DNA of 64,000 nucleotides, taken from positions 38,378-102,377 of the IMG/VR virus record IMGVR_UViG_3300027708_001885. One strand, given 5' to 3'. The notes under the pieces are model-generated. The model had not been told where the DNA came from, searched no databases, and saw only the letters and a program-made list of their open reading frames with translations. Position numbers and translations under genes: made by a program. The stretch comes from a virus. This document shows positions 9,724 to 58,295 of this stretch, piece by piece; position 1 is the first letter of the stretch; each line of letters begins with the position of its first letter.

Positions 9724-9751
9724 GATGTTTTTATTTACCTACTAAAATAAC

Positions 9752-9866
9752 AGGTTCTCATTTTTGTGCTACCAATACACCAACACAGTTGACCAAACTG
9801 TGTCCAGGATTCGAACCTGGTCCGTCTTTTTTGCAGAAAGTTTAATAAGATTGCTGAAAAGAACCT
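9752..9866 (-). tRNA. Apparent circularly permuted tRNA-Cys (GCA)
   Basis: On the minus strand the 3' part comes first: an anticodon arm CTTT-CTGCAAA-AAAG (anticodon GCA), a T-arm CCAGG-TTCGAAT-CCTGG, then acceptor strand ACACAGT. After 7 nt comes the 5' acceptor strand ACTGTGT, followed by the D-arm GTGT-ATTGGTA-GCAC. ACACAGT and ACTGTGT pair perfectly. The outer ends are joined by a 7-bp stem AGGTTCT/AGAACCT. No CCA is encoded. The order therefore is anticodon-T-acceptor-D, as in algal and archaeal permuted tRNAs. Processing to a functional tRNA is inference. Confidence 0.6.
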
Positions 9867-9883
9867 AAATGGTCAAATAAAAC

Positions 9884-9998
9884 AGGCTACTTTTTTTGAT
9901 GGCGATGAAGCCATTGCTCTACCATTGAGCGAATTTGGGAAACCCCAAATGTTGGAATCGAACCAACGTGTCATAAATGACTTTGCTGAACGTAGCCT
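9884..9998 (-). tRNA. Apparent circularly permuted tRNA (CAU anticodon possible)
   Basis: The same reversed layout as the neighbouring element. T-arm GTTGG-TTCGATT-CCAAC and acceptor strand ATTTGGG are followed, after only 4 nt, by the 5' acceptor strand CCCAAAT and D-arm GCTC-AATGGTA-GAGC. Then comes a hairpin ATGGC-TTCATC-GCCAT. A 7-bp outer stem AGGCTAC/GTAGCCT closes the unit. The anticodon is ambiguous: the hairpin loop has 6 nt, while joining TTCAT to AA from the other half would make a normal Met-type loop TTCATAA. Confidence 0.5.
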
Positions 9999-10003
9999 AA
10001 AAC

Positions 10004-10674: not shown

Positions 10675-10965
10675 ATACTTTATTGAAACACACTAACCGC
10701 TCTGTTCCTACTGTATGCCTACAGTTTGTATCCATTCGTTTAATACGTTTCAATAAAGTGTCTAGCTACCTACACCACATAGGCCCTAGACTGAGCGGTC
10801 TACTCTGTCTACGTATTTCTTCTTTTGGAAAAGGTTAGCGTTCCCCACCCAATGCGTTTCCAGTATCCCCCAACAGGGACTGATAGTCAATGCACTGCAC
10901 ACTTAGCACTCTCTATGGTGACTGCCCCACCCACTTTCATAACGTCAAAGTGTAACCCGGGTTTC
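10675..10965 (-). other. Non-coding structured stretch between tRNA-Thr and tRNA-Gly
   Basis: No gene is supported in these 290 nt. The part nearest tRNA-Gly is a long hairpin with a perfect 13-bp stem (10677-10689 with 10747-10759). The rest contains two copies of a G-rich block on the minus strand (GTGGGTGGGG and TTGGGTGGGG) and a TTGGGGGATACTGG stretch. It could be a structured RNA or the remains of tRNA-like elements. Confidence 0.5.
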
Positions 10966-11664: not shown

Positions 11665-11952
11665 TGGTGCTCCGAGCCGGACTCGAACCGGCACACCTTG
11701 CGGCGAGAGATTTTCTTACCACTATAGTTTTCACTACCCTTGCGGTTTGATGGTCTGGACTATACCTTCATCATAGTATTACTACTTTAGATGCCCGCCG
11801 TCTAGTCTCTACACGTTCCCTTTCGGGCTTCGCTCGGTATTAGCATTTTACAGCCTTCACCGAATTTGACGGGTTCTACTCCTAGCATTTCCACTAGGGC
11901 ACTCAAATTTTACTCTCAAGTCTCTTGTGTCTACCTATTTCACCATCGGAGC
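11665..11952 (-). tRNA. tRNA-Leu (TAA) interrupted by a group I intron
   Basis: The exons are about 35 and 50 nt. Joined, they give acceptor GCTCCGA/TCGGAGC, an anticodon stem-loop AGAGA-CTTAAAA-TCTCT with anticodon TAA, a long variable arm, T-loop TTCGAGT and encoded CCA. The interruption lies between T34 and A35, the classical tRNA-Leu(UAA) intron site. Confidence 0.92.
11715..11917 (-). other. Group I intron in tRNA-Leu(UAA)
   Basis: A 203-nt intron lies between exon ends CTT and AAAATC. It has group I core sequences: AACCCGTCAAATTC, GCGAAGCCCGAAAGG, GTGTAGAGACTAGACGGC (P7/R region) and GGTATAGTCC (S region). It ends in G. This is the arrangement of cyanobacterial and chloroplast tRNA-Leu introns. 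No open reading frame is present, so the intron is not itself mobile by a coded endonuclease. Confidence 0.92.
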
Positions 11953-12036
11953 ATTACCAAATTAAAACATACTACTAACAGGCGGTCGATATCAGCGTTA
12001 GCCAAGTCACTTACCCGTATGCAGTATGTTTTAATA

Positions 12037-12112
12037 TGGTGCCCTAGGAGAGACTCGAACTCTCAGAACCTGGTTTCTAAGACCAGTACGTATACCATTC
12101 CGTCACCAGGGC
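12037..12112 (-). tRNA. tRNA-Leu (TAG) with short variable loop
   Basis: Acceptor GCCCTGG/CTAGGGC, anticodon stem-loop CTGGT-CTTAGAA-ACCAG, 5-nt variable loop GTTCT, T-loop TTCGAGT, encoded CCA. The 5' half (GGTGACGG..GGTATACG) looks leucine-like, but the long variable arm of bacterial tRNA-Leu is missing. Confidence 0.85.
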
Positions 12113-13972: not shown

Positions 13973-14065
13973 TGGTACCAGCGGAGAGGATCGAACTCTC
14001 TCAAGAACGCTAATCTGGCGCTGAAAAGATTTATAAAATCTCTCTGACTTCCAAGTCTCGCTGGC
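13973..14065 (-). tRNA. Class II-length tRNA, anticodon probably TAT
   Basis: Acceptor GCCAGCG/CGCTGGT, T-arm GAGAG-TTCGATC-CTCTC and encoded CCA are clear. The anticodon arm GAGAT-TTTATAA-ATCTT gives TAT (Ile, AUA codons), followed by a long extra arm CGC-CAGATTA-GCG. 93 nt is long for tRNA-Ile, so the amino-acid identity is uncertain. Confidence 0.6.
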
Positions 14066-14066
14066 A

Positions 14067-14143
14067 TATATAAACACACTTTATGCTTTGGGAATAACAT
14101 TTCTGTTAAGCAACCATCAACGGTTACGAAGTGTGTTTATATA
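14067..14143 (-). repeat. Inter-tRNA hairpin linker
   Basis: A perfect 15-bp inverted repeat (TATATAAACACACTT and its complement) encloses about 47 nt between two tRNAs. The same AAACACACT-type stem recurs in four other spacers of the array. Confidence 0.7.
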
Positions 14144-14219
14144 TGGCGTCCCTAACGAGATTCGAACTCGTGTACCCGACGTGAAAGGCCGGTGTCCTAG
14201 GCCTCTAGACGATAGGGAC
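14144..14219 (-). tRNA. tRNA-Glu (TTC)
   Basis: Acceptor GTCCCTA/TAGGGAC, anticodon stem-loop CCGGC-CTTTCAC-GTCGG, T-loop TTCGAAT, G73, encoded CCA. First of two Glu tRNAs. Confidence 0.94.
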
Positions 14220-17474: not shown

Positions 17475-17595
17475 TGGTGCCGCTGCTGGGATTCGAACCC
17501 AGATAACCCCCTTGACATGGATTAAGAAAATTGCTGAACGTACTCTATACAGAGTCACCCTTTTATAAGGTGTCCTACCATTAGGCGACAGCGGC
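17475..17595 (-). tRNA. Interrupted tRNA with about 45-nt insertion
   Basis: Acceptor GCCGCTG/CAGCGGC, a D-arm with AATGGTA, T-arm CTGGG-TTCGAAT-CCCAG and encoded ACCA are clear. Between D-arm and T-arm are three hairpins instead of one: CACCT-TATAAAA-GGGTG, ACTC-TGTATA-GAGT, then GTTCAGCAA and an arm with loop ATGTCAA. The last would give an Asp (GTC) anticodon if the preceding part is removed. The GTTCAGCAA motif is shared with the permuted tRNAs. Confidence 0.55.
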
Positions 17596-17602
17596 AATAA
17601 CT

Positions 17603-17677
17603 TGGTGGTAATGACTGGATTTGAACCAGTAACACTCTCCGTATGAAGGAGGAAGACTACCATTGTCCTACATTACC
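17603..17677 (-). tRNA. tRNA-Met/Ile2 (CAT)
   Basis: Acceptor GGTAATG/CATTACC, anticodon loop TTCATAC, T-loop TTCAAAT, encoded CCA. Whether it is elongator Met or lysidine-modified Ile cannot be told from sequence alone. Confidence 0.9.
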
Positions 17678-17757
17678 ATATAGAAACACACTGGCTTGCA
17701 AGACTCCTACTAACCTTTCGATAGATGTCGCAGTTAGTATTCAATGTGTTTTTATAT
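17678..17757 (-). repeat. Inter-tRNA hairpin linker
   Basis: An imperfect 15-bp inverted repeat with AAACACA in the stem encloses about 50 nt behind tRNA-Met. Same family as four other spacers. Confidence 0.6.
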
Positions 17758-17779
17758 GGTAGGGGTTTTATGAGTTGAT
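17757..17779 (-). pseudogene. Possible tRNA remnant
   Basis: On the minus strand a CTCATAA-like anticodon loop lies close to CCCCTACCA, a tRNA 3' end, with no T-arm between. It adjoins the start of the VSR-like endonuclease gene and may be a scar of its insertion. Confidence 0.3.
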
Positions 17780-19001: not shown

Positions 19002-19022
19002 ATTGATGAATATGATAATAGG

Positions 19023-19095
19023 GGTGACCACTGAGAAGTCTCACTCAGACTACAACTTTCACAGAGTTGGGTGCCAATTTTACACTATGGTCACC
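19023..19095 (-). tRNA. tRNA-His (GTG), atypical, within an 18-bp inverted repeat
   Basis: Anticodon stem-loop CAACT-CTGTGAA-AGTTG, acceptor GTGACCA/TGGTCAC with an extra G(-1)-C73 pair as expected for His. The D-loop is AAAATTG and the T-loop TGAGACTT, both atypical. No CCA is encoded. The flanks continue pairing, making an 18-bp inverted repeat around the gene. Confidence 0.7.
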
Positions 19096-19112
19096 CCTAT
19101 TATCACATAAAC

Positions 19113-19187: not shown

Positions 19188-19196
19188 AAATATAAC

Positions 19197-19252
19197 AGGA
19201 TGCTTATTTTTCAATTAACAGTTGAATTGGATAAGTTTGCTGAACGCATCCT
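19197..19252 (-). repeat. GTTCAGCAA stem element (no tRNA inside)
   Basis: Follows the CCA of tRNA-Ile: TTTTAGGATGC-GTTCAGCAAA, then a smaller hairpin, then GCATCCT. The 7-bp AGGATGC/GCATCCT stem is analogous to the outer stems of the two permuted tRNAs. Confidence 0.6.
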
Positions 19253-19424: not shown

Positions 19425-19500
19425 TGGAGTAGGTAACAGGAGTCGAACCTGCATAAAACAGATTTGCAATCTGCCCCCTAGCCTTTCGGGTCATACCTAC
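19425..19500 (-). tRNA. tRNA-Cys (GCA)
   Basis: Acceptor GTAGGTA/TACCTAC, anticodon loop TTGCAAA, T-loop TTCGACT, T73, encoded CCA. Standard order, in contrast to the permuted Cys-like element. Confidence 0.9.
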
Positions 19501-19510
19501 ATAATAAAAC

Positions 19511-19570
19511 AGGATCAACTTTTTAGTTTCTGGATAAAAGAAAGTTTGTTAGTTTTGCTGAACTGATCCT
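19511..19570 (-). repeat. GTTCAGCAA stem element (no tRNA inside)
   Basis: Follows the CCA of tRNA-Pro: TTTTAGGATCA-GTTCAGCAAAA, an inner hairpin TTTCT-TTTATCC-AGAAA, then TGATCCT. Same architecture as the element behind tRNA-Ile. Confidence 0.6.
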
Positions 19571-56413: not shown

Positions 56414-56443
56414 ATTATACAGTCTCTTTAACGTCGGCGTCAA
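56414..56443 (-). promoter_or_regulatory. Sigma70-like promoter of hsp20 inside the dnaK tail
   Basis: TTGACG, 18 nt, TATAAT; the -35 is in the last codons of dnaK. No heat-shock sigma32 boxes are seen. Confidence 0.65.
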
Positions 56444-58295
56444 CGATATTATTATCCTTGTCGCTCTTGGCCTTTTCTTCAGCTTCGTGCTTTTTAGCAG
56501 TAATAGGATTCATAGCTTCGTAAAGTTTTGGAATACTATCCTGGATAATCTTTGCGTCATCGCCTTTGACAGCATCTTCAACTGCTTTTACAGCATCTTC
56601 CGCATTGGCTTTTTCTTCTTCCGTGACCTGATCACCGTACTTTTCTACATCGCCTTTAAAGGTGTGTAGAGTACTTTCGGCGCTATTACGAGCTTCAATC
56701 AATTCACGTTGCTTCTTATCTGCTTCTGCATTAGCTTCTGCATCCTGAACCATACGTTCAATTTCATCCTTGCTCAAACCGCTATCAGATTTAATAGTGA
56801 TCTTATTCTCTTTACCAGTTCCTTGATCCTTGGCACTGATCTTCATGATACCGTTGGCATCAACATCAAATGTAACTTCGATCTGTGGTGTTCCGCGTCG
56901 TGCTGGAGGAATACCGTCCAATTTAAATTCGCCAAGCGCCTTGTTGTATTGGAACAACTCACGCTCACCCTGTGCCACTTTGATATCAACAGCAGGTTGA
57001 TTGTCTTCCGCTGTGGAGAACACTTGACTTGCCTTGGTTGGGATAGTGGTGTTCTTTTGGATCAACTTGGTAAAGACACCGCCCATTGTTTCGATGCCTA
57101 AACTCAATGGAGTAACATCCAACAATAGAACGTCGGTGCGGCCACCACCTAGAACATCACCTTGGATAGCAGCACCTGCGGCAACTGCTTCGTCTGGATT
57201 AACGTCCTTACGTGGAGCCTTGCCAAACAACTGTTCAACAACTTCCTGTACCTTTGGCATACGAGTCATACCACCAACTAGAATAACTTCGTCAATGTCG
57301 CTGGCACTAACACCTGCGTCTGCCATAGCAGTCTTACATGGTCCGATACTGCGCTGGATCAATTCTTCAACTAGTTGTTCCAACTTACTGCGTGTAAGTT
57401 TAACGTTCATGTGCTTAGGACCACTTGCGTCTGCTGTGATGTAGGGCAAATTAACGTCTGTCTGTGCTGAACTTGACAGTTCAATCTTGGCCTTCTCAGC
57501 GGCTTCTTTTAGGCGCTGTAGAGCCAACATGTCTTTCTTAAGATCAACGCCATTGTCTTTCTTAAATTCATCAACTAAGAAATCCATAATGCGTTGGTCA
57601 AAGTCTTCACCACCTAAGAATGTATCACCATTTGTAGATAGCACTTCGATTTGTTTGTCGTCATCGACATTGGCAATCTCGATGATAGAAACGTCAAATG
57701 TTCCACCACCTAAGTCATAGACTGCAATCTTACGATCACGCTTGTCTTGTTTATCAACACCATAGGCCAATGCGGCTGCTGTTGGTTCGTTGATGATACG
57801 CAGAACTTCTAGACCTGCAATCTTACCTGCGTCTTTGGTTGCTTGGCGTTGACTGTCGTTAAAGTATGCAGGCACAGTGATAACAGCCTGTGTCACTTCT
57901 GTGCCCAAATAGTCTTCCGCAGTCTTTTTCATCTTACGTAGAACTTCAGCTGAGATCTGTGGAGGTGCTAGTCGATCGTTATTTGCTTCTACCCATGCAT
58001 CGCCGTTGTCGGCTTGGACAATTTTGTAAGGCATTAGGTCAATGTCCTTCTGAACAGCCTGTTCAGTAAATTTACGGCCGATCAAACGCTTGGCTGCGTA
58101 AATTGTGTTCTTTGGGTTTGTGACTGCTTGACGTTTTGCACTGGCTCCAACGAGAATTTCGTCATTAGCATAAGCTACAATACTTGGTGTAGTGCGAGCA
58201 CCTTCTGCGTTTTCAATGATTTTTGTGACGCCGTTTTCAATAACTGCCACGCAGGAATTTGTAGTTCCGAGATCTATTCCGATTACTTTGCTCAT
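56415..58295 (-). CDS. dnaK: Hsp70 chaperone DnaK, full length
   Basis: 626 aa, essentially the length of bacterial Dna[15 protein letters not shown] at the start, the phosphate-2 motif [14 protein letters not shown] near 195, [14 protein letters not shown] near 340 and the linker [19 protein letters not shown] are all intact, followed by a substrate domain and a helical lid ending [13 protein letters not shown]. The usual EEVKDK tail is modified. No GrpE or DnaJ is in the window, so host partners are presumably used. AAGGAGA precedes the ATG. Confidence 0.96.

What the first reader, a model, noticed from the sequence alone, without database searches (positions are those of the whole stretch)
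9752..9866. Circularly permuted tRNA-Cys gene in a phage-like tRNA array
Seen in sequence: on the minus strand the order is anticodon arm (GCA), T-arm, 3' acceptor strand, 7-nt bridge, 5' acceptor strand, D-arm. The acceptor strands pair 7/7, the D, anticodon and T arms are all intact, and the outer ends are joined by a perfect 7-bp stem. Known: permuted tRNAs occur in some algae and archaea, where excision by tRNA endonuclease and circularisation restore the molecule. I know of none in phages. Inference: the RNA circularises via the outer stem and is opened at the 7-nt bridge.
Basis: partly seen in the sequence, partly recalled or inferred. Interest (0 to 1): 0.87.

Follow-up and report, generated by a model that had tools for sequence, protein, structure and literature searches.

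The report
Phage tRNA mimic with Ro60-like partner
The odd gene is most likely not a scrambled tRNA gene but one of a large family of small phage RNAs that imitate tRNAs and probably ride on a virus-encoded Ro60-like protein, perhaps as bait for bacterial enzymes that cut tRNAs.

Summary
In detail: window 9752-9866 (-) has the described order, and 42 relatives show compensatory changes in the acceptor stem across the cap. The tRNA-gene reading is not the best one. The outer 7-bp stem followed by UUCAGCAA is the shared scaffold of a phage RNA family (225 model matches at E up to 1 in 75 chosen sources; three more complete members in this window). Many short members carry only an anticodon-arm-like hairpin. 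Among the 42 nearest relatives, anticodon base 35 is the most variable position, and 26 carry Tyr or Ser anticodons on a body with a 4-nt variable region, unlike the phages' own tRNA-Tyr/Ser. 28 of 32 carrier records encode a DUF2828 protein whose model has the Ro60 fold (Z 18.4); an element often lies just upstream of the gene. Rfam's nearest models are YrlA (bacterial Y RNA) for long members and Dictyostelium class I RNA for short ones, below threshold. Verdict: Y-RNA-like tRNA mimic of a phage Ro60-like protein. Partner: strong inference. Decoy for tRNA-targeting enzymes: plausible, untested.

The parts
9752..9866 (-). The finding: scaffold element (7-bp outer stem + TTTCAGCAA) holding a capped, permuted tRNA-like body with GCA anticodon arm
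   Evidence: Sequence; 42 distinct sequences aligned with acceptor covariation; model R1 47.1 bits for 9745-9869
9860..9866 (-). Outer stem, 5' strand AGGTTCT (pairs with 9752-9758)
   Evidence: in the wider family 97 of 142 motif sites have the exact partner, swapped-stem control mean 1.6, largest 5
9851..9859 (-). Conserved motif TTTCAGCAA next to the stem, proposed (not shown) Ro60-like protein binding site
9825..9841 (-). Anticodon arm, loop CTGCAAA; base 35 (9833) is the most variable position in the 42 sequences
9804..9820 (-). T arm
9783..9803 (-). Acceptor stem closed by a 7-nt cap TTGGTCA (9790-9796)
9766..9780 (-). D arm (its stem never varies in the 42 sequences)
9752..9758 (-). Outer stem, 3' strand AGAACCT, followed by GTT
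9884..9998 (-). Second permuted tRNA-like element: stem AGGCTAC, GTTCAGCAA, T arm, 7-bp acceptor with 4-nt cap GTTT, D arm, second hairpin; permuted at another point
   Evidence: fold z -6.0; Rfam YrlA 26.5 bits, full length, for 9880-9999
19511..19570 (-). Short element between tRNA-Pro and tRNA-Cys: stem AGGATCA, GTTCAGCAA, hairpin with 7-nt loop
   Evidence: R1 69.2 bits (it was also a training sequence)
19197..19252 (-). Short element: stem AGGATGC, GTTCAGCAA, anticodon-arm-like TTCAA-CTGTTAA-TTGAA (GTT)
   Evidence: R1 66.9 bits (also a training sequence); Rfam Dicty_Class_I_RNA 27 bits
17478..17595 (-). tRNA in normal order with an insert holding a hairpin followed by GTTCAGCAA: by reading, the same scaffold the other way round

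Best explanation
The element encodes a small noncoding RNA of Y-RNA type. It is co-transcribed with the tRNA array and released when neighbouring tRNAs are trimmed. Its ends pair in a 7-bp stem which, with UUCAGCAA, is bound by a phage Ro60-like ring protein (DUF2828). The body imitates a tRNA with a readable anticodon arm but a capped acceptor, so it cannot be charged as it stands. Sister RNAs display other anticodons or only the anticodon arm. Most likely use: the protein-RNA particle offers tRNA-like bait to enzymes that act on anticodon loops, above all tRNA-cutting defence nucleases, and so spares the phage's tRNAs. Shown by sequence: anatomy, covariation, family, co-occurrence and adjacency with the gene of a protein whose predicted model has the Ro60 fold. 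Inferred: co-transcription, release, binding, capped acceptor in vivo, decoy role.
For: Scaffold family with covarying stem. Acceptor and T arm covary in permuted order. Short interiors: 59 of 125 have a 7-nt-loop best hairpin (shuffles 5.25), 53 of 59 with U33. Co-occurrence: DUF2828 in 28 of 32 carrier records, TROVE 0 of 32; DUF2828 in 0 of 24 records that matched the 5' motif without a stem partner. Adjacency: 33 of 39 DUF2828 genes in viral contigs have an element at most 400 nt upstream on the same strand, 17 within 50 nt. Fold: Ro60/TROVE entries lead Foldseek (E 1.9e-10) and VIA (Z 18.4, 396 aligned, rmsd 4.7). YrlA model hits on long members: 48.9, 39.6 and 26.5 bits. Anticodon base 35 most variable, 33/36/37 nearly fixed.
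Against: The own record has neither DUF2828 nor TROVE, though it is a 102-kb virus record that may be a fragment. Best YrlA score stays below the 69-bit cut-off and the finding itself gave no YrlA match. The motif UUCAGCAA differs from known Ro60-binding sequences (recalled). No binding or expression data. Variable base 35 could be mere lack of constraint. Three members (L016, L026, L096; read by eye) have ACCA after the acceptor strand. Three of 12 DUF2828 phage records gave no model match at E up to 0.5. The negative-control records are smaller: only 9 of 24 exceed 50 kb. Energy z-score of the finding is only -1.78.
Confidence: 0.6

Rival explanations
1. Y-RNA-type particle as above, but the tRNA-like body is an adaptor that brings the Ro60-like ring to a nuclease or RNA-repair enzyme for decay or repair of damaged RNA, not a decoy.
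For: Deinococcus Y RNA tethers Rsr to PNPase (passage in PMC7790460). A Listeria phage has a tRNA-splicing ligase gene close to DUF2828.
Against: Does not explain why many short RNAs are bare anticodon arms with differing anticodons.
Confidence: 0.28
2. Bait or regulator for tRNA-modifying enzymes: loops keep the marks of i6A37 tRNAs (A36 A37 A38) or t6A37 tRNAs (U36 A37).
For: 37 of 42 long relatives are G34-N-A36, A37 in 42 of 42; short ones have A or U at 36 in 48 of 53 against 1108 of 1980 tRNAs in the same loci (10 tRNAs without a 3-letter anticodon left out), Fisher p 1.2e-7.
Against: The same marks would suit nucleases that read hypermodified loops; modification rules are recalled, not tested.
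Confidence: 0.1
3. One reading: a permuted tRNA gene; the RNA circularises at the outer stem and is opened at the bridge to give tRNA-Cys.
For: Arm order and acceptor covariation. Known permuted tRNA genes have bridges of 1-74 nt, and those of C. merolae encode no CCA (passages in PMC3978253), so neither cap length nor missing CCA excludes it. ACCA is present in three members.
Against: Tyr/Ser anticodons on short-variable bodies, constant cap core, short members without acceptor, ordinary tRNA-Cys present, possible bulge-helix-bulge in only 5 of 42.
Confidence: 0.05
4. Remnant of a tandem tRNA duplication that lost its outer halves.
For: Such a remnant would leave a 3' half followed by a 5' half.
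Against: Compensatory changes across the cap and 55 carrier contigs; shared scaffold.
Confidence: 0.01

Closest known systems
Bacterial Y RNA YrlA (Rfam RF02553), partner of Rsr/Ro60
   Same: Paired ends forming a stem (protein-binding in Y RNAs, recalled); tRNA-like module with T arm, capped acceptor-like stem and D arm in the same order (model line); Ro60-fold protein encoded by carriers.
   Different: Scores below Rfam's cut-off (26.5-48.9 of 69 bits); other stem motif; carries an anticodon arm or only that arm; partner is DUF2828 without a Pfam TROVE match; several copies per phage inside tRNA arrays.
Dictyostelium class I RNA (Rfam RF01414)
   Same: About 60 nt; short covarying end stem; conserved motif beside its 5' strand (model consensus CCUUACAGCAA; phage variants include CCTTACAGCAA in L201); variable interior; 3' end CUGU (phage CCUGUU).
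   Different: Eukaryotic; known binding protein is the RRM protein Rnp1A; class I RNAs were reported in no other organism (PMC7919456, passages); phage hits at most 35.3 of 41.5 bits.
Circularly permuted tRNA genes of algae and archaea
   Same: 3' half before 5' half, joined by a short bridge.
   Different: No consistent bulge-helix-bulge, anticodon not consistent with the body, scaffold shared with non-tRNA members.
Ro60/TROVE proteins (2NVO, 1YVR, 9L5Y of Thermus phage phiLo)
   Same: Fold match over most of the length and a vWA domain with DxSxS.
   Different: About 11-16% identity; matched by Pfam DUF2828/DUF7788, not TROVE. TROVE proteins themselves are noted in a small subset of jumbo phages (PMC7824862, passage).

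Membership tests
Bacterial/phage Y RNA (YrlA, RF02553) | Reaches the family's Rfam gathering score | tested here: not met
   26.5 bits for 9880-9999, 48.9 and 39.6 for L060 and L202 members, cut-off 69; the finding itself gave no YrlA match
Bacterial/phage Y RNA (YrlA, RF02553) | Ro60-type protein encoded by the carrier, often near the RNA | tested here: met
   DUF2828 (Ro60 fold by model) in 28 of 32 carrier records and near elements; not in the window's own record
Bacterial/phage Y RNA (YrlA, RF02553) | tRNA-like module enclosed by an end stem | tested here: met
   67 of 143 distinct long interiors are permuted tRNA-like; acceptor covariation
Bacterial/phage Y RNA (YrlA, RF02553) | RNA bound by the Ro60-type protein | not testable with these tools
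   Needs pull-down or binding assay
Circularly permuted tRNA gene | 3' half upstream of 5' half with cloverleaf arms | tested here: met
Circularly permuted tRNA gene | Bulge-helix-bulge at the joint | tested here: not met
   Possible in 5 of 42 sequences by a simple rule
Circularly permuted tRNA gene | Body agrees with the isotype named by the anticodon | tested here: not met
   26 of 42 Tyr/Ser anticodons with 4-nt variable region; 175 of 176 genuine tRNA-Tyr/Ser in these loci are at least 80 nt. For the finding's own Cys anticodon this test says nothing
Circularly permuted tRNA gene | Circular intermediate and mature rejoined tRNA | not testable with these tools
   Needs RNA
Dictyostelium class I RNA (RF01414) | Reaches Rfam gathering score | tested here: not met
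   Best 35.3 of 41.5 bits; all 4 RF01414 matches lie on elements
Ro60/TROVE protein (for DUF2828) | Ro60 fold over most of the length | tested here: met
   Model pLDDT 78.5, pTM 0.72; Z 18.4/16.3/16.0/14.6 to Ro60/TROVE entries, residues from 29 to 452-463
Ro60/TROVE protein (for DUF2828) | Pfam TROVE match | tested here: not met
   TROVE in 0 of 32 carrier records; one DUF2828 protein scanned gave vWA_Ro60 only at 12.7 of 27.7 bits and no TROVE

The most novel reading that the evidence does not exclude
Phages carry a modular counter-defence particle: a Ro60-fold ring protein loaded with a library of anticodon-bearing tRNA mimics whose anticodons turn over as tRNA-cutting defences change; and dictyostelid class I RNAs, so far without relatives, are eukaryotic members of the same stem-plus-CAGCAA family with a Ro60-like partner still to be found.
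Probability: 0.2. Interest if true: 0.92.

Novelty: new variant of a known kind. Interest (0 to 1): 0.78.

Why it matters
Proteins like the DUF2828 protein of Vibrio phage 6E35.1a are found in 682 of 50,697 phage records, some labelled Ro-like, without a known RNA partner in the open papers that I could search. This work proposes partner RNAs and gives a sequence rule for finding them. It suggests that phages display anticodon arms on a protein scaffold, which would be a new answer to tRNA-targeting immunity, and it offers a lead on relatives of dictyostelid class I RNAs. It also warns that permuted tRNA-like folds in phage genomes need not be tRNA genes.

Tried and rejected
Permuted tRNA gene: weakened by the anticodon and family evidence (see rivals). 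Duplication remnant: rejected by covariation. TROVE as partner: 0 of 32 carriers; DUF2828 was found instead through the Vibrio phage. PDB sequence profile search with the DUF2828 alignment: 4 weak matches, none a Ro60, so the relation rests on fold. Looking for an intact tRNA with the same anticodon in the fetched pieces: 11 of 42, 9 of 27 in loci with at least 10 tRNAs (this set of 42 TTGGT-capped elements overlaps but is not the set of alignment A4), uninformative. Element search in 84,980 species' genomes with one AT-type pattern: 0 matches, so the family was not seen outside viruses at that stringency. Weak Rfam matches off the elements also occur: a partial YrlA match of 17.6 bits (E 2.6) on ordinary tRNAs. 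Literature: I saw only listings; no listed title or abstract start names this RNA family or an RNA partner of DUF2828. Most subscription papers are not held; the key Y RNA papers (Chen 2014; Sim 2020) are not, and what I say of them is recalled, including that Y RNAs have been reported in phages.

Selection effects: outer stems are 100% paired in A1 because the script demanded an exact partner, and fixed in A4 because the search pattern fixed them; so only and the inner helices of A4 count as stem evidence. The presence of TTGGT in the caps rests, which did not ask for it; the later list for A4 did. The 98 rows include at least two likely chance hits (L018, L110). The 75 sources were mostly chosen because they held a stem. 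The acceptor count leaves out the two outermost pairs, which the alignment does not hold in register; one sequence (L139) pairs poorly. Several contigs are near duplicates (for example L138/L149/L157), and two of the 32 carriers are near-identical Vibrio phages. Carriers for searches were the longer records, 32 of all those held.

Full report
WHAT IS THERE. Neither ARAGORN nor Rfam at gathering calls a tRNA there. The window is part of a 102,377-base IMG/VR virus record with 34 ARAGORN tRNAs in the window, including an ordinary tRNA-Cys(GCA) at 19425-19500.

IT IS NOT ALONE. The same outer stem pattern (AGGNNNN/NNNNCCT), followed by NTTCAGCAA and ended by GTT, recurs in the window at 9884-9998, 19511-19570 and 19197-19252, and in another form inside the tRNA at 17478-17595. 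Of 142 distinct motif sites with 200 nt downstream, 97 have the exact 7-nt partner; with stems swapped between sites the mean is 1.6 and the largest 5. A covariance model built from 66 short elements gives 225 matches at E up to 1 in 75 chosen sources, 757,824 bases. A looser script (AG-start exact stem, T[TA]CAGCAA) finds 313 elements in 133 loci. Of the 306 with a tRNA in the locus, all 306 lie on the strand of the nearest tRNA, at a median distance of 11 nt; 209 lie within 100 nt, against 40% of random positions in the same loci, which are tRNA arrays themselves. 73 of 313 sit directly between two tRNAs, so that trimming of the neighbours would free them (the release is inference).

WHAT THE SCAFFOLD HOLDS. 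Of 125 distinct short interiors, 59 have a best hairpin with a 7-nt loop (5.25 in shuffles); 53 of the 59 have U33 and 51 a purine at 37; 17 have no 5-bp hairpin. The 59 look like anticodon arms: TTT 11, TAT 7, TGT 6, GTT 5 and others. Base 36 is A or U in 48 of 53 against 1108 of 1980 tRNAs in the same loci.

THE FINDING'S OWN FAMILY. 55 contigs hold the element with the same stem. In 42 distinct sequences, the window's included, the anticodon triplets are GTA 17, GAA 9, GGA 7, GCA 4, GCG 2, TGA 2, ACG 1. Base 35 is the most variable of all 115 positions of the window's element (1.91 bits), while U33 (41 of 42), A36 (39 of 42) and A37 (42 of 42) hardly change. TTGGT lies in every cap. Two-sided changes occur in 5 of 5 scored acceptor pairs, 2 of 5 T-arm pairs and 1 of 5 anticodon-stem pairs; 114 cells in all against 39.5 in shuffles. 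So the permuted fold is real and selected. But 26 of 42 carry Tyr or Ser anticodons on a body with a 4-nt variable region, while 56 of 57 genuine tRNA-Tyr and 119 of 119 tRNA-Ser in these loci are at least 80 nt long. That bacterial Tyr and Ser synthetases need the long arm is recalled knowledge. A possible bulge-helix-bulge exists in 5 of 42.

THE PARTNER. Similarity searches led to isolates: Synechococcus phage BUCT-ZZ01 and KVP40-like Vibrio phages. Near the Vibrio array lies a protein with DUF2828 and DUF7788 matches. DUF2828 occurs in 28 of the 32 carrier records given to the search, TROVE in 0 of 32; the 4 without it are IMG/VR records of 50 to 184 kb. Among 24 records that matched the 5' motif without a stem partner, 0 have DUF2828, though only 9 of them exceed 50 kb. 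In 39 viral-contig loci with the gene, 33 have an element at most 400 nt upstream on the same strand, 17 within 50 nt. Of 12 named phage records, all with DUF2828 (two of them found through the element), 9 give a model match at E up to 0.5, and 6 below 0.001; Vibrio phage 6E35.1a, LeBron and Los1 do not, although 6E35.1a and Los1 show stems with the variant motif ACAGCAA by eye or script. The permuted mimic also occurs in Felixounavirus UAB_Phi87 and Klebsiella phage FBKp34. A model of one DUF2828 protein (33-sequence alignment; pLDDT 78.5, pTM 0.72) matches Ro60/TROVE structures first: Foldseek E 1.9e-10 (9kop), 3.0e-9 (Ro60 of Thermus phage phiLo), 2.1e-8 (Deinococcus Rsr); VIA Z 18.4, 16.3, 14.6, and 16.0 for human Ro60, above the single-domain vWA rows near 10. 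A sequence profile did not find Ro60. The window's own record lacks the gene. In the relative L134 the gene lies 1.4 kb from a block homologous to the last kilobase of this record, so it may lie just past the contig end; the wider order is not collinear, so this is only a possibility.

KNOWN RELATIVES. For the four complete window elements no Rfam family reaches gathering. Long members draw YrlA, the tRNA-mimicking bacterial Y RNA (26.5 bits for 9880-9999; 48.9 in L060; 39.6 in L202; cut-off 69), though the finding itself does not, and short members draw Dictyostelium class I RNA (27 bits at 19196-19251; up to 35.3 in L111; cut-off 41.5). Other YrlA matches: 28.2 bits in L186, over the end of one tRNA with a scaffold insert and the start of the next, and a partial 17.6 bits on ordinary tRNAs. 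Class I RNAs share the end stem, the CAGCAA motif beside it, the variable middle and the CUGU end, and were reported in no other organism (PMC7919456, passages). For Salmonella YrlA, the authors suggested that the tRNA-like domain might competitively inhibit an anticodon nuclease (PMC7790460, passage).

MECHANISM. Shown: anatomy, covariation, family, adjacency and, on a predicted model, Ro60-like fold. Inferred: binding by the DUF2828 protein; release by tRNA trimming; no charging; bait for enzymes that act on anticodon loops. Phage tRNAs are already known to counter tRNA-cutting defences (PMC13096335, passages), which makes a mimic plausible. Variable base 35 fits changing targets but would also arise without constraint.

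VERDICT. Observation confirmed; tRNA-gene reading unlikely; a new variant of the Y RNA kind, with a probable partner and an open function.

Noticed in passing
window 19010-19108 (-): The ARAGORN tRNA-His (19021-19094) sits inside a 21-nt, 95% complementary inverted repeat that lengthens its acceptor stem and, by reading, has no CCA: possibly another uncharged tRNA mimic.
   Followed up: partly
window 11956-12040, 10677-10759, 17674-17761, 14065-14145: Further spacers in the array are closed by 17-27-nt inverted repeats (81-100% complementary) with variable interiors; unidentified structured RNAs.
   Followed up: no
window 11734-11921 (-): Group I intron (Rfam 61.1 bits) that splits a tRNA, by reading a tRNA-Leu.
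   Followed up: no
L186 2398-2672: Vibrio phage 6E35.1a has tRNA-like genes in normal order with inserts; the one at 2398-2520 carries a hairpin followed by ATTCAGCAA and, by reading, a long acceptor-side repeat without CCA.
   Followed up: partly
L138, L042, L044, L082 and others: A separate class of scaffold interiors ends in GAGTTTCGAT..CTC..AAAAAGTAG, often just upstream of the DUF2828 gene; fold unknown.
   Followed up: no
L185 10990-11286: Synechococcus phage BUCT-ZZ01 has a match to permuted tmRNA (RF04321, 111.9 bits, cut-off 47), overlapping a beta_tmRNA match.
   Followed up: no
window 56415-58295 (-): A 626-aa protein that reads as DnaK (by recall); PHROG 22485, 1.6e-273, unknown function.
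   Followed up: no
L196 6850-8061: In Listeria phage LMSP-25 a tRNA-splicing ligase gene lies close to the DUF2828 gene.
   Followed up: no
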